Shown: piece by piece, positions 9,776 to 25,479 of the stretch
Numbering within the stretch: position 1 is the first letter of the stretch
Layout of the letters: every line of letters begins with the position of its first letter
Assembly: GCA_036262055.1 (NCBI GenBank)
Contig: DATAJP010000002.1
Location: 62,001-126,000 of the forward strand
Length of the DNA stretch: 64,000 nucleotides
Direction of reading: 5' to 3'
Source: Ignavibacteria bacterium
GTDB lineage: Bacteria; Bacteroidota; Ignavibacteria; Tepidaquicellales; Tepidaquicellaceae
Made by a program: the position numbers and the translations under genes
Notes under the pieces: generated by a model
The model's input: only the letters and a program-made list of their open reading frames with translations
Databases searched by the model: none
What the model was told of the DNA's origin: nothing

Positions 9776-9777
9776 GT

Positions 9778-11243: not shown

Positions 11244-11251
11244 TATTTGCC

Positions 11252-11275
11252 GTTGTTGGTGTTTTCACCAACAAC
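11252..11275. repeat. GTTGTTGGTG palindrome, copy 1
   Basis: Perfect 10-bp arms GTTGTTGGTG / CACCAACAAC with a TTTT loop, flanked by GCC. Two further copies lie at 58789 and 59277 with identical arms, an AAAA loop (same sequence, opposite strand) and the same GGC flank. It ends 8 bases before the tRNA-Ser gene. Confidence 0.85.
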
Positions 11276-11283
11276 CAATATTC

Positions 11284-11370: not shown

Positions 11371-11501
11371 CTCTCATCTGTTACTTTCTTTAGCAATTCA
11401 TATTTTTGCCTTTTTACTTCTGCTTTTTTACTACCCTTATAACAATGTTGCAATTTATAAATTCAAAAAGTAATTTGTGCCATTAGACAATTTTTGAAGA
11501 A

Positions 11502-11864: not shown

Positions 11865-11926
11865 TTAATAAAAAAAGTTTTAGTAGTCTTATAAAAAATC
11901 ATCTTTAAACCTTAAACAAAAATCAA

Positions 11927-12163
11927 ATGAACGACACAAACACAGGTATGCCACCCAAAGAGGATAAATTAGGTGCTCCTCTGACAATCATTTCATTTTG
12001 TATTCCGCTTGTTGGTATTATTCTTTATTTTGTGAAGAAAAACGATCAACCGCAATCTGCAAAGACTGCATGCTACGCTGCTCTAATCGGCATCGGAGTT
12101 GGAATACTTGCCAATATAATCGCAGGCATTGCAGGAATAGGTATGTCTGGTATGGGAAATTAA
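11927..12163 (+). CDS. Small two-helix membrane protein
   Basis: 78 residues. It has a short polar N-terminus with a PPKEDK segment, helix 1 about 18-36 (LTIISFCIPLVGIILYFV), a charged KKNDQPQSAKTA loop, and a Gly/Ala/Ile-rich helix 2 (about 50-72). It resembles small DUF4190/DUF4870-type membrane proteins in layout, but I cannot assign a family. A terminator follows at 12199. Composition is consistent with a real gene. Confidence 0.65.
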   Translation: MNDTNTGMPPKEDKLGAPLTIISFCIPLVGIILYFVKKNDQPQSAKTACYAALIGIGVGILANIIAGIAGIGMSGMGN

Positions 12164-12198
12164 GGAACAATAGTTTTACGCAATATATTATTTGAAAC

Positions 12199-12218
12199 AA
12201 CCCGGTTAACGCCGGGTT
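12199..12218 (+). terminator. Rho-independent terminator after the small membrane protein gene
   Basis: AACCCGG / CCGGGTT stem with a TTAACG loop, followed by TTGTTTAT. It lies 36 bases after the stop codon at 12163. Confidence 0.75.
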
Positions 12219-12223
12219 TTGTT

Positions 12224-12673
12224 TATATTATATTGAACCTCGATATTTGACAAACCACACGGCAAATTCAATTCAGAAATCAAATTGAAACCCGACTTAA
12301 TTGACACAAATTATATTTTATGATTAATTTTCAGTGGGCAATAGTTTAAAAACAAATCATTTTAAATAAATATTCTTTTTATACACCCCTTAAAATTTAT
12401 TTGTTTTTAAACAAACCTCGATAAATGACAAAATTTATTTTTCAGGCTTAAACCGGGTCTTATATTAACTGCCAGTCGGTATCACGCGACGTTCCTTTTG
12501 CCATATAAACTACCCACGTTCGGTTCTTGTATATGACTGACCCATAAAAGCCGAAGCAATTCCGGTCATGCATCCCCGGCTCAAATCTACACTGTTTTTA
12601 AACCTTTTTTTCCCTAATTATTGTCAAATATCTCGGTTATGAATTGTCAAATACCGCGGTTTACAATAATATA
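12224..12673. mobile_element. MITE-like element with imperfect terminal inverted repeats
   Basis: The ends at 12224-12254 and 12643-12673 are inverted repeats matching at 25 of 31 positions (core AACCxCGxTATTTGACAA). Two further copies of the core lie inside: 12414-12431 (same orientation as the left end) and 12621-12638 (inverted, 22 bp from the right-end copy). The interior carries no full-length gene. This fills most of the gene-free stretch 12164-12741. It is either a non-autonomous transposable element or a cluster of protein-binding sites; no target-site duplication is obvious. Confidence 0.42.
12460..12597 (-). pseudogene. Possible protein fragment inside the inverted-repeat element
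   Basis: On the minus strand a 45-codon frame between stops reads, in part, EPGMHDRNCFGFYGSVIY and then TWVVYMAKGTSRDTDWQLI-stop. The composition (Trp, Tyr, Cys, Asp) is protein-like and unlike the AT-rich surroundings, which are also locally richer in G+C. I do not recognise the family. It could be the C-terminal remnant of a gene once carried by the element, or a small ORF with ATG at 12573. Confidence 0.25.
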
Positions 12674-12691
12674 CTTGAACCTGAAAATATC

Positions 12692-12699
12692 TATTTTTG
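12692..12699 (+). promoter_or_regulatory. Candidate -7 element (TATTTTTG) of the sugar dehydrogenase gene
   Basis: TATTTTTG matches the Bacteroidota TAnnTTTG element 43 bases before the ATG at 12742. No TTTG is found at the expected -33 position, so the call is tentative. An AGGAG sequence ending 5 bases before the start would be a usable ribosome binding site, unusual for this window. Confidence 0.35.
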
Positions 12700-12741
12700 T
12701 TTAGTATCGTATAAACCAAAAGAGGTTAAATAGGAGCAATA

Positions 12742-13944
12742 ATGGGTAAGAAAATAGGTTTGGGAGTTTTAATACTTGTCGCCGGTTTTGCAATATATGT
12801 GCTGTTCATTTATGATATTTTTTCGTGGTTCAGAAGCGGACCTGTCACAGTTGTAAAGGATGATGTTCAGCCGATTGCAGAAGTTACACCTCAGCAAGAT
12901 TATAAAGTAGAGACAGTCGTGGAAGGTTTAAAAAACCCTTGGGCGCTTCAGTTTATGCCTGACGGCAGAATTATCGTCACTGAAAAAGAAGGAACAATAA
13001 GAATCGTTGAGAATGGTGTCCTCTCTGCAGCGATTGCCGGTGTTCCAAAAGTTCACGTTCAGCAGGAAGGCGGATTGATGGACATAGAACTGCATCCTGA
13101 TTTTGCAAATAACGGATGGCTATATTTGGCTTATGCTGTTAACAACGGCACAAGCAACATGACACGCATTGCAAGATACAGACTCACTCCCAACGGATTG
13201 ACAGATGAACTTATAATAATGCCGGGAGTTCCGTCAAATAATAACGGAAGACATTTTGGCAGCAGATTGAGATTCGGTCCTGACGGAAAGCTTTATGTAA
13301 CACTTGGCGAAAAAGGGGACGTTGAAAGAAGCCAGAACGTTCAGGACTTACTCGGAAAAACTTTGAGATATAATGACGACGGAAGCATACCAATGGATAA
13401 TCCATATTCAGGTGAACCATATGCACGACCTGAAATTTTTAGTTACGGACACAGGAATGCACAAGGAATGGACTTTCAGCCGGGAACGGGATTGATGTTT
13501 CAGACAGAACACGGACCGTCCGGCAATGACGGACCGCGTGGAGGCGATGAAGTGAACATTGTTGAAAAGGGGAAAAATTACGGCTGGCCTCTTGTGCACC
13601 ATAAAGAATCATTGCAGGGAACCGAACCGCCGTTACTTGAATATACTCCCGCAGTTGCTCCTTCAGGAGCAATGTTTTATACAGGAGATAAATTTCCCGA
13701 ATGGGCAAATAATTTTTTCTTCACAAACTTAAGAGGTGAATGCATAATAAGGGTTGAGCTTGACGGAAGAAACGTAAAGGGGCACGAAGTTATGTTTAAG
13801 GGTGAGTATGGAAGACTGCGTGATATTACAACGGGACCTGACGGATATATTTATTTCATAACATCGGTTACAGACCCATACGGACCCGGACGCGCCGGCG
13901 GCGACAGAATTATGAGGATTGTCCCTGCAAGTGAAAATGGATAA
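12742..13944 (+). CDS. PQQ-dependent sugar dehydrogenase (glucose/sorbosone dehydrogenase family), membrane-anchored
   Basis: 400 residues. An N-terminal membrane anchor (about 5-27, no clear cleavage site) is followed by a six-bladed beta-propeller of the soluble glucose dehydrogenase/GSDH family (about 50-397). Recognisable segments are GLKNPWALQFMPDGRIIVTE, GGLMDIELHPDF, YGHRNAQGMDF, TEHGPSGNDGPRGGDEVN and KNYGWPLV. These enzymes oxidise aldose sugars in the periplasm with PQQ. No PQQ biosynthesis genes are visible here. It lies just right of the inverted-repeat element and ends 7 bases before a convergent tRNA-Ser, with no terminator between. Confidence 0.92.
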   Translation: MGKKIGLGVLILVAGFAIYVLFIYDIFSWFRSGPVTVVKDDVQPIAEVTPQQDYKVETVVEGLKNPWALQFMPDGRIIVTEKEGTIRIVENGVLSAAIAGVPKVHVQQEGGLMDIELHPDFANNGWLYLAYAVNNGTSNMTRIARYRLTPNGLTDELIIMPGVPSNNNGRHFGSRLRFGPDGKLYVTLGEKGDVERSQNVQDLLGKTLRYNDDGSIPMDNPYSGEPYARPEIFSYGHRNAQGMDFQPGTGLMFQTEHGPSGNDGPRGGDEVNIVEKGKNYGWPLVHHKESLQGTEPPLLEYTPAVAPSGAMFYTGDKFPEWANNFFFTNLRGECIIRVELDGRNVKGHEVMFKGEYGRLRDITTGPDGYIYFITSVTDPYGPGRAGGDRIMRIVPASENG

Positions 13945-13951
13945 TAAATTG

Positions 13952-14038
13952 CGGAGAGATAGGGATTCGAACCCTAGATAGACTTTCATCCATACCGGTT
14001 TTCGAGACCAGCGCATTCAACCACTCTGCCATCTCTCC
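13952..14038 (-). tRNA. tRNA-Ser (anticodon CGA)
   Basis: 87 nt on the minus strand. Acceptor GGAGAGA pairs with TCTCTCC, discriminator G. The anticodon arm TGGTCTCGAAAACCG gives anticodon CGA (reads UCG) and closely resembles the enterobacterial tRNA-Ser(CGA) arm. The long variable arm and the GGTTCGAATCCC T arm are typical. No encoded CCA. It is the second serine tRNA within 2.7 kb, in inverted orientation to the one at 11284. Confidence 0.95.
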
Positions 14039-14136
14039 TGATACACATAATAATATTCATAACAAAATTTTTCTGCAACTCATAAACGGAGAAGTTTGTT
14101 ATTATTATTTAGTGATACAAAAATAAATTATAAGCG

Positions 14137-14517
14137 ATGTTAGAAAAAATTAAGGCGGTCAGCAGCTATTCAATTAACGATATAAAAAAAGCAAAAGAAT
14201 TTTATTCGAACACCCTGGGATTGGAAGCTTCGGAAGAGATGGACGGAAATGTATTGAACGTAAATATCGGTAACGGCAATAAAATCTGGATGTATGTAAA
14301 ACCCGATCATGAACCGGCAACTTTTACAGTGCTTAATTTTCCGGTTAGTGATGTTGAGAAAACAGTCGGTGAGTTAAATAAGGTTGGCATAAAGTTTGAG
14401 CAATATGGCGGAGACATTAAGACAGATGAAAAAGGAATTTTCCACGACAATGGTTTCATGATAGCTTGGTTTAAAGACCCTGCGGGAAATGTTTTGTCGG
14501 TTGTTAAAGATAATTAA
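14137..14517 (+). CDS. VOC (glyoxalase/bleomycin-resistance fold) family protein
   Basis: 126 residues with two beta-alpha-beta-beta-beta modules. The N-terminal module has the typical NDIKKAKEFYSNTLGLEASEE segment (read in pieces: IKKAKEFY, NTLGLE). The C-terminal module ends in GFMIAWFKDPAGNVLSVV, where the DPAGN turn is a hallmark of the superfamily. Members bind a metal and catalyse isomerisation, epoxide opening or dioxygenation, or sequester drugs; the substrate cannot be told. It stands alone, divergent from the tRNA and convergent with the GlxA-type regulator. Confidence 0.85.
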   Translation: MLEKIKAVSSYSINDIKKAKEFYSNTLGLEASEEMDGNVLNVNIGNGNKIWMYVKPDHEPATFTVLNFPVSDVEKTVGELNKVGIKFEQYGGDIKTDEKGIFHDNGFMIAWFKDPAGNVLSVVKDN

Positions 14518-14646
14518 GAAAATGATTTTTTAATTATGTTTAACCGGGCATAACATTATGAATGATTTCATTGTTTGTGTTTTTTGTCGTTCTTGAAATT
14601 TCTACTTCGCCATATTTGCTTGATTTTCATTATATGCTTTACATAT

Positions 14647-15654
14647 CTAATTTCTTGAATAAACTGAAATTTCTTTATTATACTTATTTCTGTATTCAAC
14701 GGGGGATAATCCTGTAACTTTTTTAAAAACAACCCTGAATGCTTTTGGGTCCATATAGCCGACCTTATACATAACTTCGTTCACATTTTCATTTGAAGAT
14801 TCCAGGCTTTTCTTTGCAGCTTCGATTTTTACACGCTGGATATATTCGGTTACCGTATTCGACGTCGCGCTTTTAAATCTGCGTTCCAGACTTCTTCTTC
14901 CCATTGCAAGCATTGCAGCAAGTTGCTCAATAGTAATTTTTTCCTGAAAATTATTTTCTATAAATTCCTGGGCTTTTTTAACCGGTTCATCTTCATGTGT
15001 TTTTTGTCCCTGAAAGATTATGAAAGGAGATTGTTTATATCTGTCTATATCAATCATAAATGCTTTGGCAATCAGTATTGCCGTTTCACGACCGGTATAT
15101 TTTTCAATTAAGTAAACAAGGAGATTCAAAAAAGAATATGCTCCACCGCTCGTATAAATTCTGTCGTCTTCAGTCATTATCTTATCATCTAAAAGATTTA
15201 CATCAGGAAACATTTTTCTGAATTCATTTGCATGAAGCCAATGTGTTGAGCATTGTTTTCCATTGAGCAAACCTGTGGCAGCAAGAAAAAATGCGCCGAT
15301 GCAAAAAGTTACTAAATCTGCGCCTTGTTCATATTGCTTCAAAATCCACGGGATAAATTCTTTATTCTCTTCAACAGTTTTTTTCTGATCACCAAACATT
15401 GCAGGAATAATGATGATGTCTGTTTTCTTCACATCTTTTATCAAAATATCCGGTTTTATGGTAAACTGCCCGTCTCTCTGAGATGCTTCTTTTGATATTC
15501 CCACGTACTGAATTTTGAACGCAGGCGGCAAATTCATTTGCGCGCGCATGAGGTTAACCTGATTTAAAATCTGATTAGTCCCCTCAATATTTGAAATGCT
15601 TGTTTCACCTTTTGGAATTAAAATGGAAATGTGTTTGATGCTGTTTTTCATCAT
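14647..15654 (-). CDS. GlxA-family transcriptional regulator (DJ-1/PfpI + AraC HTH)
   Basis: 335 residues. Residues about 5-200 form a DJ-1/PfpI class-I-amidotransferase-like domain with the nucleophile-elbow Cys at 118 (DLVTFCIGAFFLA). Residues about 225-325 are an AraC-type double helix-turn-helix (ITIEQLAAMLAMGRRSLERR, then VNEVMYKVGYMDPKAFRVVF). Such proteins sense an unknown ligand through the N-terminal domain and usually activate adjacent genes. It is divergent from the 12-gene VOC/DoxX cluster starting at 15821, so that cluster is its most plausible target. Start choice: MMKNSIKH, with a second Met at position 2 equally possible. Confidence 0.9.
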   Translation of the reverse strand: MMKNSIKHISILIPKGETSISNIEGTNQILNQVNLMRAQMNLPPAFKIQYVGISKEASQRDGQFTIKPDILIKDVKKTDIIIIPAMFGDQKKTVEENKEFIPWILKQYEQGADLVTFCIGAFFLAATGLLNGKQCSTHWLHANEFRKMFPDVNLLDDKIMTEDDRIYTSGGAYSFLNLLVYLIEKYTGRETAILIAKAFMIDIDRYKQSPFIIFQGQKTHEDEPVKKAQEFIENNFQEKITIEQLAAMLAMGRRSLERRFKSATSNTVTEYIQRVKIEAAKKSLESSNENVNEVMYKVGYMDPKAFRVVFKKVTGLSPVEYRNKYNKEISVYSRN

Positions 15655-15765
15655 TATTGGAGCTTTTTACGGTTTTTGGTATAAATTTAAAATAAAAAAT
15701 ACGATTGTCGCATTCAACCCCTTAAAATGCCGTATTCACACCTCACGGAATTATGCTAATAATAT

Positions 15766-15773
15766 TATTTTTG
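15766..15773 (+). promoter_or_regulatory. Candidate -7 element of the VOC/DoxX gene cluster
   Basis: TATTTTTG followed by TATAG lies 48 bases before the first gene of the cluster and matches the TAnnTTTG box seen at HU. No TTTG lies at the -33 position, which would fit a promoter needing an activator such as the divergent GlxA-type protein. Confidence 0.4.
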
Positions 15774-15820
15774 TATAGTTCAATTTTAAAAACAACTTTT
15801 ACTAAAAATAAAAATTAAAA

Positions 15821-16231
15821 ATGGCTAAACAAATTTTTGTAAACCTGCCCGTCAAAGACCTAAAGAAATCTATTGAGTTCTATAGTAAGCTTGGATTTAC
15901 TTTTAATCCGCAGTTCACAGATGAAAATGCCACGAGCATGATTGTCGGAGATAATATTTTCGTAATGCTCTTGGTTGAAAAGTTTTTTAAAACTTTCACA
16001 AAAAAAGAAATTGCAGATTCAACCAAAACAACAGAAGTTATAATCTGCATTGATGCCGAAAGCAAAGAAGAAGTTGATGACCTCGTGAAAAAAGCATGGG
16101 ATGCAGGCGGTTCAATTTATGCAGACCCTCAGGACCACGGTTGGATGTATCAGCATAGTTTTGCTGACTTAGACGGACATCAGTGGGAAATTGCATATAT
16201 GGACATGAACGCATTTCCACAAAATTCATAG
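15821..16231 (+). CDS. VOC family protein (glyoxalase-like)
   Basis: 136 residues. Opens with MAKQIFVNLPVKDLKKSIEF and a YSKLGF segment; ends with GWMYQHSFADLDGHQWEIAY, where DLDGH and the preceding residues are the usual second-module signature. It is closely related to the VOC gene at 18274 (shared NLPVKD start, FADLDGHxW and YMDM end), so the two are probably paralogues in one cluster. First gene of the co-directional run of 12. Substrate unknown. Confidence 0.85.
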   Translation: MAKQIFVNLPVKDLKKSIEFYSKLGFTFNPQFTDENATSMIVGDNIFVMLLVEKFFKTFTKKEIADSTKTTEVIICIDAESKEEVDDLVKKAWDAGGSIYADPQDHGWMYQHSFADLDGHQWEIAYMDMNAFPQNS

Positions 16232-16268
16232 TCATAAATTTTAAATTAAATTATAAAGGAAATAGAAA

Positions 16269-16697
16269 ATGCCCGGAGTAAACCCTTATTTGACATTCAA
16301 TGATAATGCTGAGGAAGCATTTAATTTTTATAAATCAATTTTCGGCGGTGAGTTCATCGCGTTAATGAGATTTAAAGATATGGATTGCGGAATGCCGATT
16401 CCTGAATCCGAACAACAAAAAGTAATGCATGTTTCACTGCCGATTGGAAAAGATACTATTTTAATGGCAAGCGACACTCCCGCATCAATGGGAAAAGTAA
16501 ATCCCGGAAATAATTTTTCAATTGCAATAAATACTGACAGCAAGGTGCAGGCAGACGAATTTTACAAAGGACTTTCAACCGGAGGTCAGGCAACAATGCC
16601 TCTTCAAGACAGCTTTTGGGGTGCATATTTTGGCATGTGCACGGATAAATTCGGCATAAACTGGATGGTAAGTTATGATTACAACCAAAATAAGTAA
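16269..16697 (+). CDS. PhnB-like VOC family protein
   Basis: 142 residues. VNPYLTFNDNAEEAFNFYKS followed by IFGGEF is the classic PhnB/YjdN start, and the C-terminal segment FGMCTDKFGINWMVSYD completes the fold (DKFGINWMV). The family is structurally known but its reaction is not established; annotation as a methyltransferase is historical. It lies 37 bases after the previous gene. A longer paralogue of the same subfamily is at 17745. Confidence 0.87.
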   Translation: MPGVNPYLTFNDNAEEAFNFYKSIFGGEFIALMRFKDMDCGMPIPESEQQKVMHVSLPIGKDTILMASDTPASMGKVNPGNNFSIAINTDSKVQADEFYKGLSTGGQATMPLQDSFWGAYFGMCTDKFGINWMVSYDYNQNK

Positions 16698-16769
16698 ATA
16701 TTTGTTTTTAATTATAATAACTTTACATTTATCAACTAACTTATAACCTAAAAATAAAGGAAACAAAAA

Positions 16770-17153
16770 ATGGCAAAAGCAAAAAAAGTTCAAGGCAATT
16801 ACGTAGATGGATTTGTTTTAGTAATCCCGAAAAGAAATATTGCTGCATACAAAAAATTAGCGCAACTTGCAGGAAAAATCTGGATGGAATATGGGGCAGT
16901 CAGCTATAGTGAATGCGCCGGTGATGATGTAAACATAAAATTTGGAGTTCCTTTTCCGAAACTTGCAAAAGCAAAGAAAGGTGATGTTGTGTTTTTTTCG
17001 TTCATCACTTACAAATCAAAAGCACAGCGTGATAAAATAAACGCAAAGGTTATGAAGGACCCGCGTCTTGCAGCATGCATGGATATGAATAAAATGCCTT
17101 TTGACATGAAAAGAATGTCAATGGGCGGTTTCAAAGCAATTGTTAATTATTAA
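16770..17153 (+). CDS. DUF1428 family (YbaA-like) protein
   Basis: 127 residues. YVDGFVLVIPKRNIAAYKKL, GAVSYSECAGDD and VVFFSFITYKSKAQRDKINA (in pieces: FITYKSKAQRD) are diagnostic of DUF1428, a dimeric ferredoxin-like alpha-beta barrel family. Function unknown. These proteins often occur with VOC/PhnB and DinB genes, as here. Gap of 72 bases to the previous gene, the largest within the first half of the cluster. Confidence 0.87.
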   Translation: MAKAKKVQGNYVDGFVLVIPKRNIAAYKKLAQLAGKIWMEYGAVSYSECAGDDVNIKFGVPFPKLAKAKKGDVVFFSFITYKSKAQRDKINAKVMKDPRLAACMDMNKMPFDMKRMSMGGFKAIVNY

Positions 17154-17202
17154 TTAATTAGAAAAAATTTTGTAAAACTTTAAATAATTTAAAAAATCAG
17201 AC

Positions 17203-17700
17203 ATGGAAACGAAACCAAAAAGTTCGAGGATGTATCCGTTCATAGTTCTCTATGATATGCATACAAAATTTTTTATAAACTCAATTGTTGATATAAAAGA
17301 TGAGGACGCACATAACCGTCTCGGCACAAAAGCAAATCACGCCGGATGGATTGCAGGAAGTCTTGTGTTTCAAAGATTTGACATGGCAAGAGAACTCGGC
17401 AAATCAGAATTAAAAGCGTCATTTGATGAGTTATTCAAGGATTACAAAGGGCTACAGGAAAATGAAAAATACCCTTCAATGGATGAATATAAAAAAGAAT
17501 GGGAAAGAATCAGTCCGGTTCTCAGAGAAATTTACATGAACATCAGTGATGAAAAATTAGATGAGATATTTGATATGGGTGAAATGAAAATGCCTTACTA
17601 TGACTTAGTTGGATTCATGATTCATCGTGAATCATATATGATTGGACAGTTGGGTCTTTGGAGAAGGTTGCTCGGATATCCTGCAATGAAATATGAATAA
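17203..17700 (+). CDS. DinB family protein (four-helix metal-binding fold)
   Basis: 165 residues, helical. Candidate metal-ligand histidines occur in KANHAGWIAGSLVFQRFD (about residue 47) and in the late GFMIHRESYMIGQLGLWRRL helix (about residue 145), the typical DinB_2 placement. DinB-like proteins are thiol- or damage-related with mostly unknown chemistry; some are bacillithiol or mycothiol transferases. It sits in the VOC/PhnB cluster, which supports a detoxification role by association only. Confidence 0.8.
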   Translation: METKPKSSRMYPFIVLYDMHTKFFINSIVDIKDEDAHNRLGTKANHAGWIAGSLVFQRFDMARELGKSELKASFDELFKDYKGLQENEKYPSMDEYKKEWERISPVLREIYMNISDEKLDEIFDMGEMKMPYYDLVGFMIHRESYMIGQLGLWRRLLGYPAMKYE

Positions 17701-17744
17701 ACTAAAATTAAAATTTTAATAAACTACTAAGAGGGAATATTGAA

Positions 17745-18248
17745 ATGGCAAACACAAAAATAGAACAAAAAATTGTTCCATGCATCTGGTATGATAACCA
17801 GGCGGAAGAAGCAGTAAACTTTTATGTTTCAATTTTTAAAAATTCACGCGTAGAAACCGTTACACGTTACGGCAAATCCGGCTCTCAAGAATCAGGACAA
17901 CCTGAAAGTTCGATTATGACAATAACATTTTTTCTTGATGGTCAGAAATTTATTGCACTTAACGGCGGACCGGTTTTTAAGCTTTCTGAGGCAATGTCAT
18001 TAATGATTTACTGCAAAGACCAGGCAGAGATTGATTATTTTTACGACAAGCTTGCTGACGGCGGACAGATTCAACCCTGCGGATGGTTAAAAGACAAGTT
18101 CGGGCTTTCATGGCAGCTTGTAACACCTTTGATGGATGAAGTATTCAATGATAAAGATACTAAAAAGCAGGAAAGAGTTATGGCAGCAATAATAAAAATG
18201 ACAAGAATTGATTTGAAAACACTTGAAGACGCTTACGAAGGTAAGTAA
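17745..18248 (+). CDS. PhnB-like VOC family protein (longer paralogue)
   Basis: 167 residues. KIVPCIWYDNQAEEAVNFYV and the SIFKNSRV segment, a central FIALNGGPVFKLSEAMSLMI, then CGWLKDKFGLSWQLVTP. This is the subgroup often mislabelled 3-demethylubiquinone-9 3-methyltransferase. It has an extra C-terminal helix with a KKQERVMAAIIKMTRIDLKT segment that fits dimerisation in this subgroup. A weak GAGGG sits upstream of the start. Confidence 0.88.
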   Translation: MANTKIEQKIVPCIWYDNQAEEAVNFYVSIFKNSRVETVTRYGKSGSQESGQPESSIMTITFFLDGQKFIALNGGPVFKLSEAMSLMIYCKDQAEIDYFYDKLADGGQIQPCGWLKDKFGLSWQLVTPLMDEVFNDKDTKKQERVMAAIIKMTRIDLKTLEDAYEGK

Positions 18249-18273
18249 CAAATTTTAAAATTTAATAAACAAT

Positions 18274-18678
18274 ATGACAAAAGAAATGTGGATTAACCTG
18301 CCGGTAAAAGACCCGGTGAAATCAAGAAAATTTTATGAAGCTCTTGGCTGTGAAGTTAATGACCAAAGAAGCAACGACCAGATGACAGCGGTTATTGTCG
18401 GCGATCAAAGAATTGCGGTAATGCTTTTCAGAGATGATGTTTTCAATAGATTTATAAATGATTCTACACCACAGCAAGGAACCGAAGTAATATTTTCTTT
18501 TTCTTCAGAATCTCCTGAAGCAGTAAGAGAAATTACAGAGAGAGCAAGAAAAGCAGGCGCAACGATTTTTGCCGAGCCGCAGGATGTTCAGGGCTGGATG
18601 TACACAGGAGGTTTCGCAGATTTGGACGGACATAAATGGAATGCTCTTTATATGGATATGAGTAAAATGCCTCAATAA
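18274..18678 (+). CDS. VOC family protein (paralogue of the 15821 gene)
   Basis: 134 residues. MWINLPVKDPVKSRKFYEAL near the start and GWMYTGGFADLDGHKWNALY at the end. The layout mirrors the gene at 15821, including the C-terminal YMDMSKMPQ. In the last module the Glu of DGHQWE is replaced by Asn (DGHKWN); this Glu is often a metal ligand in VOC enzymes, so the metal site may be altered. It lies 25 bases from the upstream gene and 13 from the downstream gene. Confidence 0.85.
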   Translation: MTKEMWINLPVKDPVKSRKFYEALGCEVNDQRSNDQMTAVIVGDQRIAVMLFRDDVFNRFINDSTPQQGTEVIFSFSSESPEAVREITERARKAGATIFAEPQDVQGWMYTGGFADLDGHKWNALYMDMSKMPQ

Positions 18679-18691
18679 CACTTAAGTACCT

Positions 18692-19498
18692 ATGGCAAAA
18701 CTAAAAAGTGAAAAAGCAAAAAAGCCGGCAGCAAAAAACACAAAAGTTCCAACTACGCCGGTTGATTTAACTGCAAAGAGTTTTATTGAGAGATTAAAGA
18801 AACACAGCAATCCCGAGCAGGCAAAACAATATCTGCATTATTTCAAAACCGGCAAAGGTCAGTATGGCGAAGGTGACATGTTTATTGGTGTAAGAATGGG
18901 AACAGTATTTGCGCTTGCAAAAGAATTCATAGACATGCCATTAAAAGAAATTGAAAAAATGCTTGAGAATAAAATTCATGAAGTGAGAGCAAGCGCAATG
19001 AGCATAATGAACCAGAAGGCACGAAAGAAAAAAACTCCTGAAAGCAGAAGAAAAGAGCTTTATGATTTATATCTGCGACGGCATGATAGAATTAATAACT
19101 GGGATTTGGTTGATGTAAGCGCACCGTATGTTATAGGCGGTTACTTATATGAATTTAATAAACCGCGAAATATATTATATAAGCTTGCGCGTTCAAAAAA
19201 TTTATGGGAGCGAAGAACATCGATTCTGGCAACGGGGTATTTTATAAAACAAGGTGATGTGGAAGATACTCACAAAATAGCAGAAATGCTGTTGAACGAT
19301 AAAGAAGATTTAATCCATAAAGCAGTCGGCTGGATGCTTAGAGCATCAGGCGGTGGCGCAAACAAACAAAAGCTTTTAAGGTTTTTAGACAAGCATGCTG
19401 CGTCAATGCCGAGAACGTTACTTAGATATTCACTCGAACATCTTGACAAAAAAGAACGTGAGCATTACATGGGTTTAAAGAAATCTTTGAATAAATAA
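18692..19498 (+). CDS. AlkD-like DNA glycosylase (HEAT-repeat alkylation repair)
   Basis: 268 residues. A Lys/Ala-rich N-terminal tail (1-25) precedes a HEAT-repeat array typical of AlkD. Active-site equivalents are visible: W137 and D141 in NNWDLVDVSAP, W172 in NLWERRTSILA, and W214 in KAVGWMLRASG. AlkD excises N3- and N7-alkylpurines without base flipping. Placement between VOC and DoxX genes suggests the cluster answers electrophile or alkylation stress (inference). Confidence 0.9.
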   Translation: MAKLKSEKAKKPAAKNTKVPTTPVDLTAKSFIERLKKHSNPEQAKQYLHYFKTGKGQYGEGDMFIGVRMGTVFALAKEFIDMPLKEIEKMLENKIHEVRASAMSIMNQKARKKKTPESRRKELYDLYLRRHDRINNWDLVDVSAPYVIGGYLYEFNKPRNILYKLARSKNLWERRTSILATGYFIKQGDVEDTHKIAEMLLNDKEDLIHKAVGWMLRASGGGANKQKLLRFLDKHAASMPRTLLRYSLEHLDKKEREHYMGLKKSLNK

Positions 19499-19500
19499 TT

Positions 19501-19926
19501 ATGAAAAACTTTTTTGAAAACAACAAAGACATTGGGACATTAGTTTTGAGAGTGACAATCGGTATTGCGTATGCATTCATCTACGGTTTAATGAAAATTA
19601 AAGCCGGACCTGAACTGTGGACTCAAATTGGAAGCGCAATGTCAAACATCGGCATTAATTTTGCTCCGACTTTTTGGGGATTTATGGCAACCTTAAGCGA
19701 GTTTGGAGGAGGAATTTTATTAATACTCGGATTATTTACAAGATGGACTTTACTATTCATGATATTCACAATGTTTATTGCAATGTTAACGCATTTATCA
19801 ATGCAAGACCAATGGTATAATGTTATGAATCCGATAAACATGATGGCAGTATTCATTGCAATATTATTCTGGGGACCCGGGAAATATAGTCTTGATGCGC
19901 TTTTCTTTAAAAAGAAATCTGTTTAA
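19501..19926 (+). CDS. DoxX family membrane protein (first of tandem pair)
   Basis: 141 residues with four membrane helices. DIGTLVLRVTIGIAYAFIYG, PTFWGFMATLSEFGGGILLI and ILGLFTRWTLLFMIFTMFIA are typical DoxX segments. It starts 2 bases after the alkD-like stop. The neighbour at 20007 has the same layout and shares PTFWGFMA, GLFTR and GKYSLDA, so this is a tandem duplication. DoxX proteins act in membrane redox or sulfur/thiol-linked stress complexes in characterised cases. In this copy the usual HGWPK-like segment reads YGLMK. Confidence 0.87.
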   Translation: MKNFFENNKDIGTLVLRVTIGIAYAFIYGLMKIKAGPELWTQIGSAMSNIGINFAPTFWGFMATLSEFGGGILLILGLFTRWTLLFMIFTMFIAMLTHLSMQDQWYNVMNPINMMAVFIAILFWGPGKYSLDALFFKKKSV

Positions 19927-20006
19927 TCTTGCAAAAGACTACAGAACTTTTTCTGCACCGTTAATGTTATATAAGCAATCCTTATTTATCAACATTAACA
20001 GCTCAA

Positions 20007-20444
20007 ATGAAAAATTTTCTCACCAACCTCAAAGACATACCTATTCTTATCTTAAGAATAATATTAGGAATTGAATTTATTTTTCTGCACGGATGGCCAA
20101 AGCTTTCAGGAGGTCCTATAAGGTGGACGCGAACAGGAGAAGCAATGAGTAATTTAGGAATTACGTTCTTTCCGACTTTTTGGGGATTCATGGCGTCAGC
20201 AACTGAATTTTTCGGAGGGATTCTGATTCTTTTAGGATTGTTCACGCGTTCAGCATCGGTATTTCTGACATTTACAATGATTGTAGCAATGCTTCAGCAT
20301 TTATCAAGATTAGACCCCTGGGGCAGGGTGTTTCACCCGATGAGCTTGGCTGCAGTATTTTTTTTGTTTATATTTATAGGCGCGGGGAAATACAGTCTTG
20401 ATGCAGTTTTCTTTAAAGAGAAAAAACCTATTTTACCTGCGTAA
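20007..20444 (+). CDS. DoxX family membrane protein (second of tandem pair)
   Basis: 145 residues with four membrane helices. It keeps the FLHGWPKLSGGP motif at the end of helix 1, followed by TEFFGGILILLGLFTRSASV and GAGKYSLDAVFF. It is closer to the canonical DoxX pattern than the copy at 19501. The 80-base gap upstream is the widest in this part of the cluster and could hold a secondary promoter, though none is evident. Confidence 0.88.
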   Translation: MKNFLTNLKDIPILILRIILGIEFIFLHGWPKLSGGPIRWTRTGEAMSNLGITFFPTFWGFMASATEFFGGILILLGLFTRSASVFLTFTMIVAMLQHLSRLDPWGRVFHPMSLAAVFFLFIFIGAGKYSLDAVFFKEKKPILPA

Positions 20445-20461
20445 TAAATTTATTATTAGCT

Positions 20462-20848
20462 ATGAAAATTAAACTAACCAACGTTATGGTCGATGACCAG
20501 GACAAAGCTTTAAAATTTTATACTGAAGTTCTTGGCTTTGTCAAGAAAAAAGATATGCCGATGGGCGGAGCAAAATGGCTTACTGTTGTTTCCCCTGACG
20601 AACAGGACAGCACTGAACTGCTTCTTGAGCCGATGGGAATTCCAGCCGCAAATGTTTTTCAAAAAGCATTATTCGATGCTGGAATACCTTATACCGCTTT
20701 TGAAGTTGATAATATTCAGGAAGAATATAAAAGATTGAAAGACCTTGGAGTAGTTTTCAGAGGAGAGCCAACTCGAATGGAAGGAATGCCTGAGATGGTG
20801 AGCTTCGAAGATACCTGCGGAAATCTTATTTTGATTTATCAGCTTTAG
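20462..20848 (+). CDS. VOC family protein
   Basis: 128 residues. MKIKLTNVMVDDQDKALKFY with a TEVLGFVKKKD segment, then LLLEPMGIPAANVFQKALFD, and EMVSFEDTCGNLILIYQL at the end. The final DTCGNLI is the usual VOC D-x-x-GN turn with Cys replacing Pro or Glu neighbours. This subgroup resembles glyoxalase-superfamily proteins found with DoxX genes. It lies 17 bases after the DoxX gene and 16 before the SnoaL-like gene. Confidence 0.86.
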   Translation: MKIKLTNVMVDDQDKALKFYTEVLGFVKKKDMPMGGAKWLTVVSPDEQDSTELLLEPMGIPAANVFQKALFDAGIPYTAFEVDNIQEEYKRLKDLGVVFRGEPTRMEGMPEMVSFEDTCGNLILIYQL

Positions 20849-20864
20849 TTTATTTTATTTAAAT

Positions 20865-21323
20865 ATGAACGAGCAAGAAATCAGAGACTTATATGATAAT
20901 TTGTTAAATGCGTGGAACAACAACGATGCGAAAGCAATGGCAGAGTTGTGTTCCAATAACGCAAATTTCATCGGCTTTGACGGGAGCCAGCACAACGGAC
21001 GAAGCGTCATCGAAGCCGATATGAAAAAAATATTTTCAAACCACAAAGTTCCTTCGTTTATTTATAAAATCCGGGAAGTAAGATTTTTATCCAATGATGT
21101 TGCGATACTTCGTTCTGTGGTAAGTATGGTTCCCCAGGGAGGTAATGACATCATACCTGAAGTAAATGCGATTCAGACATTAGTTGCTGCCAAACGCCAG
21201 GACAAATGGCTCGTTGAAATTTTTCAAAATACACCTGCAGCATATCACGGACGTCCCGAGTTAATGAAACAACTGACCGATGAATTAAGAGAGGTTCTGA
21301 AGTCCAAATTAGAAAAACAATAA
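20865..21323 (+). CDS. SgcJ/EcaC-type SnoaL-like (DUF4440) protein
   Basis: 152 residues with the cone-shaped NTF2-like fold. EIRDLYDNLLNAWNNNDAKA is the N-terminal helix pair; ANFIGFDGSQHNGRSVIEAD, ILRSVVSMVPQGG and NAIQTLVAAKRQDKWLVEIF are typical strands. The ending YHGRPELMKQLTDELREVL matches the SgcJ/EcaC subgroup. No enzymatic function is established for most members. It is the eleventh gene in the cluster. Confidence 0.85.
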   Translation: MNEQEIRDLYDNLLNAWNNNDAKAMAELCSNNANFIGFDGSQHNGRSVIEADMKKIFSNHKVPSFIYKIREVRFLSNDVAILRSVVSMVPQGGNDIIPEVNAIQTLVAAKRQDKWLVEIFQNTPAAYHGRPELMKQLTDELREVLKSKLEKQ

Positions 21324-21356
21324 TTTTTTGAAACCTGTTTTTTTCAAATCACAATT

Positions 21357-21806
21357 TTGCAAAACGATTACATAAAAGTAAAAGCGATGTGCATCTTTCA
21401 TCATAACGGAAAGATACTTGCATCAAAAGATTTTGACAACGTTAAAGAGCAGTATTATTTCCGTGTGCTTGGAGGGAGTGTTGAATTTCAGGAGAGTTAT
21501 GAAGATGCAATAAGAAGAGAAATCATCGAAGAAATCGGGAGTGAAATTGATAACCTGAAATTAATTGAGGTTATTGAAAATATTTTTGTCTGTCTGGGGA
21601 AAAAAGGACATGAAATAGTTTTTCTTTATGCAGGCGAATTGAAAAACAAAAAACTTCATGAGCAGGAAATTATCCCGATTGTCGAAAATACTTATACCGT
21701 AAATGCGGAATGGGTCCCGATTGAAAACGTGTTTAACGGCGATATTCCCCTTTATCCTCCTTTTGACTATGAAAAAATCTTTAAAGAGCTCGGATATATT
21801 AAATAA
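21357..21806 (+). CDS. NUDIX hydrolase
   Basis: 149 residues. The Nudix box is present as GGSVEFQESYEDAIRREIIE followed by EIGSE (G-x5-E-x7-REUxEExGU pattern). The start is TTG at 21357, since the first strand (YIKVKAMCIFHHNGKILAS) is needed for the fold; an internal ATG at 21387 would cut it. Nudix enzymes hydrolyse nucleoside diphosphates linked to other groups; the substrate is not predictable. Last gene of the 12-gene cluster. Confidence 0.87.
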   Translation: MQNDYIKVKAMCIFHHNGKILASKDFDNVKEQYYFRVLGGSVEFQESYEDAIRREIIEEIGSEIDNLKLIEVIENIFVCLGKKGHEIVFLYAGELKNKKLHEQEIIPIVENTYTVNAEWVPIENVFNGDIPLYPPFDYEKIFKELGYIK

Positions 21807-21857
21807 TTATCTGAAACCTATTTTTAAACTCATTTATTCATAGTGAAAAATTCATTT

Positions 21858-21887
21858 TTTAGGTAACTTACATAGCTTAACCTAAGT
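21858..21887. promoter_or_regulatory. Spaced inverted TTAGGT...ACCTAA half-sites upstream of the M61 gene
   Basis: TTTAGGTAAC at 21858 and TTAACCTAAG at 21878-21887 are inverted half-sites resembling the TTAGGTATACCTAA palindrome at 53384, but with a longer spacer. They lie about 55 bases before the M61 peptidase start. They could be a weak DtxR-family site; the spacing makes this uncertain. Confidence 0.25.
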
Positions 21888-21941
21888 ATAATCTATATAT
21901 CAGAGCATTCAGCCCTTTTTATTTAACCGATTAATCCAATT

Positions 21942-23795
21942 ATGAAAAAATTTTTAATATTATTTCTTTTTATTTGCAATTTTGCCTTCGCGCAAGTTCC
22001 TCAAAATATGACATATCAATATTTTGTGAATCTTGTCAATGTTACTGAGCCGGTTCTTAAAATCGAACTAATTACTCCAAAAATCGATGAAGAGACAATA
22101 ATTTTCCGCCTGCCTGAAATGATTCCAGGCACATACCGCATTCTCGATTTCGGAAGATATGTAAACGAAGTAATGGCATATGATGCACAGGGAAATGCTC
22201 TGACAGTGACCCGTCTCGATACAAACTCATGGCAAATTGATAATGCTACTTCACTATATAAATTGACATATAACGGATATCCGAGCTTTAATGATACTTT
22301 ACCGAACAATTATGTTTATCCGATGGGCGGAACGAACATCGAGCCGGGGAAAAATTATGTTCTGAACAATCACGGATTTTTCGGTTATTTCGATGGTTAT
22401 CTTGCAAGAGAATATGCGCTTAACATTACAAAGCCGTCCGACTTTTACGGCTCAACAAGCTTGACTAAAACAGTATCGGAACCAAACCTTGATGTCATAA
22501 TTGCTCCTAACTATCAGTTTCTCGTTGATAATCCGATTATGTATAATAAGCCGGATACAACAAGCATTTATTTTCCTGAGTGCCGTGTGCTTATATCGGC
22601 TTACTCACCCGGCGGCGGCATTAAAGCAGCAGATTTGAAAGATGAGCTTGATGACTTGCTGACTGCGCATAGAAATTTTTATGGAGGCACTTTACCTGCC
22701 GACAGGTATTCATTTATATTTTATTTTGCTGCTAAGCCAAATAAGTTCGGAATAGCTGGAGCGCTTGAACATAATCTTTCATCGTTTTATTATTTTCCTG
22801 ACGCTCCTGCGGCTCAGAAAAAAATGGTTCTCGGCTATCTTGGTGACATGAGCTCGCATGAATTTTACCATATTATAACTCCATTGAATCTGCATGCAGA
22901 ACAGATTGCAAATTTTGATTTTAATAATCCGCAGATGTCGGAACATTTATGGCTTTATGAAGGTGTTACCGAATATAACTCGCATTACATTCAGCTTTAC
23001 GAAGACCTTATTGATTTAAAGGATTATGTTGGCGATGTCGAACAAAAACTTGAACAGTCAAAACAATATAATGATACACTTGCATTTACTGAAATGAGCA
23101 AGAACGTTCTCACAACATATAAAAAGGAATATCAGAACGTATATCAAAAAGGCGCATTAATCGGATTGTGTCTTGACATTTTAATCCGAAGTGAATCTAA
23201 CGGAGAGCAGGGATTGCAGGATGTTATTAATTCTCTTATGGCAAAGTACGGGAAAGACACACCGTTCAAGGACGAAGAATTATTTGCGGAGATTACTCAG
23301 AGAACTTCTCCAGCAGTCGGTGAGTTTTTGAATACATATGTAGGAGGAAATAATAAGCTTCCCTATAAAGATATTTTTTCCAAAATAGGTTTAAAATATA
23401 CCGCAACCCCATATGAAGTTGTCGATGCCGGCGGATTTAATCTGGGTTTCAATGAATCAACTTTCAGGTTCATAATTATTGCACTCGACGAAGAAAACGA
23501 ATTCATAAAAAATCTCGGACTTCAGGCGGGAGATGAGCTTTATTCAGTCAACGGCGACGTTATTAATTTCATGAACATACGTGAAAAGCTTGCACCAAAA
23601 GGCAATAAACAAAAAATTGGTGATAAATATGAAGTTGAAGTTTATCGAAAAAATAGTGAGGGAAAGTTTGAGTTAATAAAAGCAAGCACGACAATCAGCA
23701 AGCTAAAAACAATGTATGATGAGAAAGTTGAGATAATGGATAATATTACACCTGAACAGGAAAAAATAAGAAATGCCTGGATGGGAAAAAATTAA
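21942..23795 (+). CDS. M61 family peptidase (glycyl-aminopeptidase type) with PDZ domain
   Basis: 617 residues. A signal peptide (1-18, ending FAFAQ) is followed by an N-terminal beta domain (about 20-220) and an M61 catalytic domain with H306-E307-x-x-H310 (SSHEFYHIITP) and third ligand E340 (WLYEGVTEY). A C-terminal PDZ domain (about 500-590) contains NLGLQAGDELYSVNGD. M61 enzymes are broad zinc peptidases. There is no T9SS tail, so it is probably periplasmic. Convergent with the 557-residue gene; stops are 10 bases apart. Confidence 0.92.
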   Translation: MKKFLILFLFICNFAFAQVPQNMTYQYFVNLVNVTEPVLKIELITPKIDEETIIFRLPEMIPGTYRILDFGRYVNEVMAYDAQGNALTVTRLDTNSWQIDNATSLYKLTYNGYPSFNDTLPNNYVYPMGGTNIEPGKNYVLNNHGFFGYFDGYLAREYALNITKPSDFYGSTSLTKTVSEPNLDVIIAPNYQFLVDNPIMYNKPDTTSIYFPECRVLISAYSPGGGIKAADLKDELDDLLTAHRNFYGGTLPADRYSFIFYFAAKPNKFGIAGALEHNLSSFYYFPDAPAAQKKMVLGYLGDMSSHEFYHIITPLNLHAEQIANFDFNNPQMSEHLWLYEGVTEYNSHYIQLYEDLIDLKDYVGDVEQKLEQSKQYNDTLAFTEMSKNVLTTYKKEYQNVYQKGALIGLCLDILIRSESNGEQGLQDVINSLMAKYGKDTPFKDEELFAEITQRTSPAVGEFLNTYVGGNNKLPYKDIFSKIGLKYTATPYEVVDAGGFNLGFNESTFRFIIIALDEENEFIKNLGLQAGDELYSVNGDVINFMNIREKLAPKGNKQKIGDKYEVEVYRKNSEGKFELIKASTTISKLKTMYDEKVEIMDNITPEQEKIRNAWMGKN

Positions 23796-23805
23796 TTTTA
23801 GTTTA

Positions 23806-25479
23806 TCAAGCAGCGCTTCCGGTTTTCTGTAAATGACTAATCAGTGCATAGCGTTCTTTTTTAATCCAGTTATAAAGCGCAGTAATTTCTTTCGTAATTT
23901 CTTTTATTTCAAGATTTTGTGAGAGAAGCTTTAACAACGTATAATCATATAAAATATTATAATTATCTTCACGCTTTTTTAAAATGTTTACCTGATTTTT
24001 TATAGCAGGATAGTATTTTGATGTTAGTTGTTTCTTGTCCATATGAAATGTATCGGCAAGAATTCTCACACAGATTTTAAGGGTGTTGAAATAAATAATG
24101 TTTGAAATCGTATGACCTTTTTTTATTAACCTTTCTATTTTGTTAATGAAATAAAAAGCATTTTCGGTATCTCCGTTTTTCCACTTCCAGAATTCAAGCT
24201 CTATCTGAGTGATATAAATAAAAAATAACTGGTCAATGCTGTAAAGCTTATCAAGATTAATGAGAGCTTTCTGATTGAATGAACTGAATTTTTCAAGAAC
24301 GTTTTTATTGATTTTTATATCCGAATCATAATTATTGCTTTCCCAGTATGTCAGATTGCTTATGTATTTATCAGCTTTTAAAGTATATAGCCTGAAGAAC
24401 GCATCTGCCGAACGGGAATAAATAAAAAGATTGTTAACCAGTTCATACGATAACCGGTTAAACATGCCCGTATCACCATAGCTTGACGCAAAGCGTAAGT
24501 AATGAAACAAAAGATGCAGAATGTAGTCGGCATCATAATTTTTATCCATTTTAAAATGATATTCCCCCATTTCCTGAATATAATTTTCAATTAGGTTTTT
24601 ATCCGTGAATGAGTTTAACAGCATTAATTTTATACGGAAAATTATTTTTTCATTCTCAAAATTTTCATCATTTTCTTTTGAAGCAAGCTCGAATCCTTTT
24701 GTATAATAAATCCTTGCCGAATCCACGCCATTGACCTCAAGCTCAAGATTTCCCTTCAGAAATAAAAATTTTAAAATATATTTTGTATAGTTAATTGCTT
24801 CAACATAGTTCAATGCATGTTCTAAATTTTTTAATGCAATCAGGTAAGGTTTTTGTGTTTTAACAAGAAACTGATACCTTAGCGCTTCGCAATAATGCAT
24901 CCGCATTTTTAAAATATTTTTTGTTTTCTTATTATAACAATTTTTTGACACAAATTTATTCAGCCCGGATAACTTTTCATAAATCTCACGAAATCTGTTT
25001 TTATTTCTGTGCCTGTGATAGTAAATAAAATAAAATTCGTAAATTTCAGATAATAAAATTGCTTTATCAAACTGTTTTTTGCTTTTAGATTCTTTCTCCA
25101 GAGCAGATATGCACCTGTCAAAGCAATTCTTCGCTTCACGAACCATCGAATTTTTATAATATAGCAATCCTCTATCAAAAACATTCGTCTCTTTATTTTG
25201 AAATTTGAAATAATATTCTCTTAGTTCTTTCAGTATTCTTGAACGATGACATCTCAGCATGCTAATATTTATTTTCAATTTTTTGCATATCAACGTTTCA
25301 TTCCATAAGGTCCCTGCTTCTTCGCTCTCCAGGTAGTTTTCAATTATTCTTAAAAGAATTAAATTTTTTTGATTGAAAGAATTAATGCGTTTGCTTTTAG
25401 AAAAATAAAATTTTTTTCGAATTTCCTGAGGAATTGCTGAAAATTCATTAAAATAAAATAAAATTGATTTAGAAAGCAT
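23806..25479 (-). CDS. Unrecognised 557-residue helix-rich protein, possible HTH + TPR-like regulator
   Basis: 557 residues, Lys/Asn/Tyr-rich, no signal peptide or membrane segment. Residues about 35-95 (NLILLRIIENYLESEE, then LICKKLKINISMLRCHRSRI and LKELREYYF) look like a winged-helix-type DNA-binding start. From about 100 on, antiparallel helix pairs such as FDRGLLYYKNSMVREAKNCF and ARIYYTKGFELASKEN are TPR-like. The whole layout recalls one-component regulators with C-terminal helical repeats, but I cannot name a family. It is divergent from a T9SS YCF48-like gene (94-base gap), a plausible target. Confidence 0.6.
   Translation of the reverse strand: MLSKSILFYFNEFSAIPQEIRKKFYFSKSKRINSFNQKNLILLRIIENYLESEEAGTLWNETLICKKLKINISMLRCHRSRILKELREYYFKFQNKETNVFDRGLLYYKNSMVREAKNCFDRCISALEKESKSKKQFDKAILLSEIYEFYFIYYHRHRNKNRFREIYEKLSGLNKFVSKNCYNKKTKNILKMRMHYCEALRYQFLVKTQKPYLIALKNLEHALNYVEAINYTKYILKFLFLKGNLELEVNGVDSARIYYTKGFELASKENDENFENEKIIFRIKLMLLNSFTDKNLIENYIQEMGEYHFKMDKNYDADYILHLLFHYLRFASSYGDTGMFNRLSYELVNNLFIYSRSADAFFRLYTLKADKYISNLTYWESNNYDSDIKINKNVLEKFSSFNQKALINLDKLYSIDQLFFIYITQIELEFWKWKNGDTENAFYFINKIERLIKKGHTISNIIYFNTLKICVRILADTFHMDKKQLTSKYYPAIKNQVNILKKREDNYNILYDYTLLKLLSQNLEIKEITKEITALYNWIKKERYALISHLQKTGSAA

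What the first reader, a model, noticed from the sequence alone, without database searches (positions are those of the whole stretch)
15821..21806. Twelve-gene VOC/PhnB/DUF1428/DinB/AlkD/DoxX/SnoaL/NUDIX cluster next to a GlxA-type regulator
All 12 genes are co-directional, most separated by under 50 bases. Five VOC-fold proteins, two DoxX membrane proteins and an AlkD glycosylase in one run look like an electrophile or alkylation response unit. Several families have no known reaction. The adjacent DJ-1/AraC regulator is divergent, and the first promoter has a good -7 but no -33 element, as expected for activator control. It could be an undescribed stress operon.
Basis: partly seen in the sequence, partly recalled or inferred. 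Interest (0 to 1): 0.5.

Follow-up and report, generated by a model that had tools for sequence, protein, structure and literature searches.

The report
One activator, swappable detoxification-gene bank
A conserved regulator and its DNA switch sit at the head of a run of small, probably toxin-handling genes that are swapped from species to species while the switch stays the same, which suggests an undescribed bacterial chemical-defence regulon whose trigger is still unknown.

Summary
The twelve co-directional genes are real and the divergent DJ-1/AraC regulator belongs with them. Orthologues occur in 37 of 197 class genomes. The shared intergenic region holds a near-invariant operator, TGTCGcAATCAACCC-N7-TGnCGTAtTTaCacc: two direct half-sites 22 bp apart. 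At up to 2 mismatches it occurs in 34 of the 37 regulator genomes and 0 of the other 160. Outside the class, the DNA motif alone led to the regulator in 21 of 24 genomes. A -7 box lies at +58 to +60 in 31 of 54 sites, placing the downstream half-site at about -50 to -36, an AraC-type class II activator position. Behind this switch the cargo is reshuffled (VOC/PhnB, RibD-like, SRPBCC, GyrI-like, DinB-like, DUF1801, AlkD and others): 32 orders of the first five genes in 38 loci. The twelve-gene block is not conserved; regulator, operator and toolbox are. Best reading: an activator-controlled bank of small proteins that bind, degrade or repair damage from DNA-damaging or other xenobiotics. The control architecture is well supported by comparison; inducer and chemistry are inferred. 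There are no binding or expression data.

The parts
14647..15654 (-). Regulator: DJ-1/PfpI sensor domain plus AraC-type HTH, divergent from the cluster
   Evidence: Pfam; orthologues in 37 of 197 class genomes; Cys118 and Cys135 conserved
15706..15720 (+). Operator half-site 1 TGTCGCATTCAACCC (predicted about -72 to -58)
15728..15742 (+). Operator half-site 2 TGCCGTATTCACACC (predicted about -50 to -36)
   Evidence: 22-bp direct-repeat register
15766..15773 (+). -7 element TATTTTTG (TAnnTTTG), +59 from the operator's first G; predicted start near 15778
   Evidence: box position from PMC9723704 passages
15821..16231 (+). VOC1 (Glyoxalase/Ble-like)
16269..16697 (+). PhnB-type VOC protein
   Evidence: YjdN model below cut-off
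16770..17153 (+). DUF1428 (YbaA-like)
17203..17700 (+). DinB-like protein, below Pfam cut-off
17745..18248 (+). 3-dmu-9_3-mt/PhnB protein
18274..18678 (+). VOC2
18692..19498 (+). AlkD-family DNA glycosylase with W137, D141 and W214 aligned to the catalytic residues
19501..19926 (+). DoxX membrane protein 1
20007..20444 (+). DoxX membrane protein 2
20462..20848 (+). VOC3
20865..21323 (+). DUF4440/SnoaL-like protein
21357..21806 (+). NUDIX hydrolase
14137..14517 (+). Further VOC protein beyond the regulator, possibly associated
   Evidence: two relatives (L153, L156) also have PhnB-type genes on that side

Best explanation
A chemical-defence regulon. A DJ-1-domain AraC-type activator senses an unknown small molecule. 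It binds a tandem operator with 22-bp-spaced half-sites, the downstream one in the -35 region, and recruits RNA polymerase to a promoter that has a TAnnTTTG -7 box but no -33 box. That switches on a long transcript for small single-domain proteins: VOC/PhnB, DinB-like, SnoaL-like and, in relatives, GyrI-like and SRPBCC proteins that bind, trap or open reactive xenobiotics; AlkD to remove alkylated bases; NUDIX to clean nucleotides; DoxX for membrane redox. The operator also abuts the regulator's own promoter, so the regulator probably limits itself. Cargo genes turn over while the switch is kept. SHOWN by sequence comparison: gene run, regulator orthology, operator, spacing, co-occurrence, reshuffled cargo, operator copies elsewhere. 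INFERRED: that the regulator binds the operator, that it activates, one transcript, a xenobiotic inducer, and the chemistry of each protein.
For: Regulator orthologues in 37 of 197 class genomes; operator (up to 2 mismatches) in 34 of those 37 and 0 of 160 others; reversed-pattern control 1 hit. Outside the class the motif-only search led to the regulator in 21 of 24 genomes, 20 with the site within 111 bp and one at 2,062 bp. In 22 loci not used to build the profiles, toolbox families are 90 of 147 genes on the cluster side against 6 of 138 on the other. Direct repeat at 22 bp. -7 box at +58 to +60 in 31 of 54 sites (shuffles: mean 1.5, max 6), and one on the regulator strand at +12 or +13 in 25 of 54. 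Extra sites precede RibD-like or PhnB genes in three genomes and an HlyD/ABC/MacB efflux operon, with the -7 at +59, in one. For xenobiotics: a subfamily of GyrI-like proteins hydrolyses yatakemycin (PMC5684135, abstract and Discussion); the AlkD-related YtkR2 protects against it (PMC8626424, abstract and passages); SiwR induces DinB-superfamily genes under genotoxic stress and ClbS detoxifies colibactin (PMC10693628, abstract and passages).
Against: No binding, expression or phenotype data. Three regulator genomes miss the pattern: G069 (spacer one base shorter), G016 and G100 (degenerate). Three genomes outside the class have a motif hit but no regulator found near it: G487, G332, G351, the last two chance by score. 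L177 and L183 carry little or no recognised cargo. By subtraction 73 of 160 genomes without the regulator carry a PF06983 gene, so that family is not tied to it. Eleven of the 37 genomes are from one family (f2), ten of them one genus (g17), so counts are not independent. Known resistance proteins in a superfamily do not fix the function of these members.
Confidence: 0.6

Rival explanations
1. Electrophile or thiol-stress response: the DJ-1 domain or its cysteines sense aldehydes or disulfide stress and the VOC, DUF1428 and DoxX proteins detoxify them.
For: Cys118 is at least 95% and Cys135 at least 80% conserved in 59 aligned regulators. DoxX, NUDIX and VOC families fit a redox or electrophile theme. 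Most DinB-superfamily genes of M. smegmatis rise with diamide (PMC10693628 passages).
Against: Glyoxalase I model far below cut-off in the two VOC ORFs that list it, not listed for the other four. Toolbox also includes GyrI-like, SRPBCC, AlkD, and efflux genes in trans, which fit drugs better.
Confidence: 0.22
2. Control of an endogenous metabolite: the regulator senses a nutrient or own metabolite, as GbdR-type relatives do (recalled), and the small enzymes are catabolic or belong to secondary metabolism.
For: Related DJ-1/AraC regulators such as GbdR (choline metabolism by its model name) respond to metabolites. RibD-like reductases are in 36 of 57 loci.
Against: No pathway-type set of enzymes recurs; cargo order and content differ in most loci, unlike a metabolic pathway.
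Confidence: 0.13
3. Loose accumulation: a tolerated gathering spot for small mobile genes with no common control.
For: Reshuffled content; a DDE transposase-like gene ends one run; families are found without the regulator.
Against: Operator in 34 of 37 regulator genomes and 0 of 160 others, fixed spacing to the -7, co-directional cargo in 128 of 147 (independent set), operators in trans before the same families.
Confidence: 0.05

Closest known systems
SiwR and its DinB-superfamily genes, Mycobacterium smegmatis (PMC10693628, abstract and passages)
   Same: Activator gene divergent from small DinB-family genes, sometimes with a glyoxalase-like gene; induced by genotoxic stress
   Different: WYL-domain regulator with a palindromic site in Actinobacteria; two target genes, not a swappable bank
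Yatakemycin / CC-1065 self-resistance (YtkR2 AlkD-related, YtkR7 GyrI-like; PMC8626424, PMC5684135)
   Same: AlkD glycosylase and GyrI-like hydrolase as protection; both families are in the toolbox
   Different: Part of a producer's biosynthetic cluster; here no biosynthetic genes among the ORFs scanned, more families, own regulator
DJ-1/AraC regulators (FtrA, GbdR by NCBIfam; AdpA recalled)
   Same: Same two-domain architecture
   Different: Far below the FtrA and GbdR cut-offs (166.7 against 425; 112.6 against 480); own operator and targets
ECF41/ECF42 sigma-factor clusters (recalled; search listing only)
   Same: Recalled to sit beside YCII, SnoaL, DoxX and similar small genes
   Different: No sigma-factor domain in the 17 ORFs scanned here; control by an AraC-type regulator

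Membership tests
AraC family with DJ-1/PfpI sensor (GlxA-type) | N-terminal DJ-1_PfpI and C-terminal HTH_18 over curated cut-offs | tested here: met
   48.7 (cut-off 26.6) and 73.7 bits (cut-off 33.6)
FtrA (NF006902) | Score over the equivalog cut-off | tested here: not met
   166.7 against 425
AraC-type class II activator promoter | Tandem direct half-sites, downstream one overlapping -35, fixed distance to the core promoter | tested here: met
   22-bp register and +58 to +60 spacing in 31 of 54 sites
AraC-type class II activator promoter | Regulator binds the operator and activates | not testable with these tools
   needs a footprint and a deletion strain
AlkD DNA glycosylase | PF08713 over cut-off and catalytic Trp109, Asp113, Trp187 | tested here: met
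   192 bits; W137, D141, W214 by alignment, residue names from PMC8626424 passage; activity not tested
DinB/YfiT superfamily (17203-17700) | Pfam DinB or DinB_2 over cut-off; His triad | tested here: inconclusive
   16.9 against 23 bits; H20 and H46 invariant in 16 sequences, the His of HIGQ is Met in the window; weak solved-chain hits, best E 0.0035; fold model pLDDT 54.5, unusable
Glyoxalase I (TIGR00068) | Equivalog cut-off 120 bits | tested here: not met
   24.8 (14137 ORF) and 24.7 (20462 ORF); not listed at E 0.001 for the other four VOC/PhnB ORFs
Known anti-phage defence (PADLOC) | Match to a defence model | tested here: not met
   8 proteins scanned at E 0.001; only NUDIX matched, candidate PDC-S07 at 33 bits; the five VOC proteins other than the 17745 one, and the second DoxX, were not scanned
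ECF41/ECF42 sigma cluster | Adjacent ECF sigma gene | tested here: not met
   no sigma-factor domain among 17 ORFs scanned from 12742 to 25479

The most novel reading that the evidence does not exclude
The conserved operator-promoter works as a docking site for defence genes: one activator with a fixed switch collects, loses and reorders unrelated small-molecule-binding and repair genes, so that each lineage carries its own chemical-immunity bank, sometimes with extra operators inside the run or in front of distant efflux and RibD-like genes. The activator would be a broad sensor of DNA-damaging antibiotics, and its operator a search key for unknown resistance families.
Probability: 0.35. Interest if true: 0.8.

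Novelty: new variant of a known kind. Interest (0 to 1): 0.62.

Why it matters
Several of these families (DUF1428, PhnB/3-dmu, DUF1801, DUF899, DinB-like, small RibD-like proteins) have, as far as I recall, no settled reaction. A regulator with a highly specific operator ties them into one response in at least two classes, gives a DNA key for listing the regulon in genomes of the group, and makes the trigger testable with one reporter. If the trigger is a class of natural genotoxins, the banks would be a catalogue of protective proteins outside antibiotic producers.

Tried and rejected
Methylglyoxal pathway as the main reading: glyoxalase I model not met. Anti-phage defence: PADLOC negative for 7 of 8 proteins scanned, weak for NUDIX. 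Plasmid or virus carriage: 137 plasmid records match, all under 60% identity, 28.7-36.5% in the rows listed, chiefly Sinorhizobium and Rhizobium; a stricter exact form of the motif is in 0 viral contigs. Motif beyond the phylum: 0 of 24 genomes behind AlkD loci (24 chosen of the 80 loci, some of them Bacteroidota by title; up to 2 mismatches) and 0 of 60 in one other phylum (up to 1 mismatch). Fold of the DinB-like protein: one-sequence AlphaFold model, pLDDT 54.5, not used. The AlkD scan of genome contigs (80 loci kept of 575 relatives) mostly returned AlkD genes in other surroundings; L014 had a similar cluster. Sites in L204-L206 rejected as chance by score.

Rows dropped and weak points: L130 and L146 (empty runs) from the cargo count; L203 as a duplicate of L130; G177 (127 bits) from the orthologue count. 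Toolbox labels come from profiles built on the class loci, so the class count (166 of 207 against 35 of 199) is partly circular; the independent set and the Pfam census are not. The list of PF06983 matches is capped. My gene caller is crude: it shows spurious ORFs in GC-rich loci and lost the L141 regulator, which I added by hand.
Full report
WHAT IS THERE. Twelve co-directional ORFs occupy 15821-21806, with 9 of 11 gaps under 50 bp. Pfam assigns VOC1, PhnB, DUF1428, 3-dmu/PhnB, VOC2, AlkD, DoxX, DoxX, VOC3, DUF4440/SnoaL and NUDIX. The gene at 17203 is DinB-like only below cut-off. The divergent regulator at 14647-15654 joins a DJ-1/PfpI domain to an AraC helix-turn-helix and is neither FtrA nor GbdR by the curated cut-offs.

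THE REGULATOR IS AN ORTHOLOGUE GROUP WITH ITS OWN OPERATOR. In 197 genomes of the class the regulator query gave 38 genomes at E 1e-30; leaving out G177 (127 bits), 37 have an orthologue of at least 319.8 bits. I fetched the surroundings. The intergenic regions share a motif. From 54 distinct primary sites the consensus is TGTCGcAATCAACCC-N7-TGnCGTAtTTaCacc. It is a direct repeat: at an offset of 22 bp the half-sites agree at 9.0 of 15 positions on average, against at most 4.9 at the other offsets from 16 to 26. Scored with a matrix built without the window, the window site at 15706 gets 56.7 bits and the next best in 64 kb gets -12.5. At up to 3 mismatches the site is unique in the 2.87 Mb genome.

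CO-OCCURRENCE. At up to 2 mismatches the motif is in 34 of 197 class genomes; all 34 are among the 37 with the regulator, none among the other 160. The reversed control hit once. The three exceptions carry altered sites: G069 with a spacer one base shorter, G016 and G100 degenerate. In 395 genomes of the phylum 38 carry the motif, 24 of them outside the class. Around the sites of those 24, 21 have the regulator (profile over 300 bits): 20 with the site within 111 bp and one (G415) with a site 2,062 bp away; for G487, G332 and G351 none was found in the stretch fetched, and the sites of the last two score as chance. This was a real prediction, because the search used DNA only. The motif was not found in 24 genomes behind AlkD loci, in 60 genomes of another phylum, or, in a stricter exact form, in viral contigs.

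PROMOTER GEOMETRY. TAnnTTTG lies at +58 to +60 from the site in 31 of 54 primary sites, 25 of them at exactly +59; shuffled sequence gives mean 1.5 and maximum 6 of 54. The window has it at exactly +59 (15766). In Flavobacterium psychrophilum this box spans -12 to -5 (PMC9723704, passages), so the start should fall near 15778, with half-site 2 at about -50 to -36 and half-site 1 at -72 to -58. That is the classical class II place for an AraC-type activator (recalled), and it explains the missing -33. Several loci outside the class show TATAAT-like boxes at the same place (by eye). On the regulator strand a TAnnTTTG lies at +12 or +13 in 25 of 54, and the called regulator start codon lies 24-26 bp from the site in 28 of 55 loci (counted from the list), so the regulator's message would often be leaderless and its promoter overlapped by the operator: autorepression is likely (inference). 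The window itself lacks a clear regulator -7.

CARGO. In the 22 loci not used for building profiles (21 outside the class plus L184 of the class), the seven genes beyond the operator are toolbox families in 90 of 147 cases and co-directional in 128 of 147; on the regulator side 6 of 138 are toolbox. A Pfam census of 142 run genes of at least 85 aa from these loci gives 47 Glyoxalase, 26 3-dmu, 20 RibD_C, 14 AHSA1, 11 DinB_2, 8 Polyketide_cyc2, 5 DUF899 and 4 DNA_alkylation matches, one gene sometimes counting in more than one family. Over 57 loci and 380 run genes, VOC/PhnB occurs in 47 loci, RibD-like in 36, SRPBCC in 27, DinB-like in 21, GyrI-like in 17, DUF1801 in 13, AlkD in 6; 75 of the 380 genes are unlabelled. 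Eight families take the first labelled place behind the same operator (2 loci have none), and 38 loci with at least five run genes show 32 orders of the first five. Of 51 PF06983 matches listed for regulator genomes, 45 lie within 10 kb of the regulator (46 with G103, whose contig is broken; the list is capped).

SITES AWAY FROM THE REGULATOR. Extra operators occur inside runs (L130, L188, L189, L198). In G029, G030 and G038 they lie about 128-151 bp before a RibD-like or PhnB gene at another place. In G155, 22 kb away, one lies 194 bp before HlyD, ABC and two MacB-type permease genes, with TAGTTTTG at +59. These fit a regulon rather than a neighbour effect.

HOW IT PROBABLY WORKS. The anatomy says: ligand-gated activator, tandem operator, one promoter, many small binding or hydrolytic proteins, one DNA glycosylase, two membrane DoxX proteins. 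AlkD keeps the catalytic Trp, Asp and Trp. Members of the same families are known to protect against DNA-damaging natural products: GyrI-like proteins hydrolyse yatakemycin and bind several xenobiotics (PMC5684135, abstract and Discussion); YtkR2 is AlkD-related (PMC8626424, abstract and passages); ClbS and the SiwR-controlled genes are DinB-superfamily (PMC10693628, abstract and passages). From memory, CalC is an AHSA1-like enediyne resistance protein, and some of the solved relatives of VOC3 (such as 5ump, 5umq, 5w27) are tiancimycin-binding proteins; neither was checked. I therefore favour xenobiotic or genotoxin defence over a methylglyoxal pathway, but the inducer is unknown. Conserved Cys118 and Cys135 keep a thiol sensor possible.

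WHAT SPEAKS AGAINST. Nothing here measures binding or RNA. Eleven of the 37 class genomes come from one family (f2) and ten of those from one genus (g17), so the counts overstate independence; by genus the motif is in 18 of 106 in the class and 24 of 171 in the phylum sample. By subtraction 73 of 160 genomes without the regulator also carry PF06983, against 35 of 37 with it. L177 and L183 have little recognised cargo.

NOVELTY. The parts are known: AraC-type activation, and each protein family. What I did not find described in ten literature searches (the motif string itself gave no paper) is this regulator group, its operator, or a constant switch with swapped cargo. The library lacks most subscription journals, so this is weak evidence of absence.

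Noticed in passing
14137-14517 +: A sixth VOC-fold gene lies on the far side of the regulator; two relatives (L153, L156) also have PhnB-type genes on that side.
   Followed up: partly
upstream regions in L138, L139, L142, L143, L145: In genus g17 an inverted pair of TGTCGCAA-like half-sites brackets the cluster's -7 box, as if a second regulator dimer could sit on the promoter (by eye).
   Followed up: no
25 of 54 primary sites: A TAnnTTTG box on the regulator strand puts the regulator's predicted start at or next to its start codon: probably a leaderless message.
   Followed up: partly
L199 (G155:C87), 9486-13993: HlyD/ABC/MacB-type efflux operon with its own operator and -7 at +59, 22 kb from the regulator.
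   Followed up: partly
L180 (G487:C12): A variant operator (34.7 bits) heads a run with a PhnB-type gene, but no regulator was found in the 19 kb fetched.
   Followed up: partly
L014 1-3317: A MAG titled Dehalococcoidia has a 3-dmu gene, AlkD (59% identical), and by eye SRPBCC and DoxX-like genes together, without the operator or regulator in the stretch: the same toolbox under other control.
   Followed up: no
L197 16362-17795: A DDE transposase-like gene at the end of a run, a possible route of cargo exchange.
   Followed up: no
11284-11371 + and 13951-14038 -: Two tRNA-Ser genes (GGA, CGA) lie upstream, either side of a glucose/sorbosone dehydrogenase gene.
   Followed up: no
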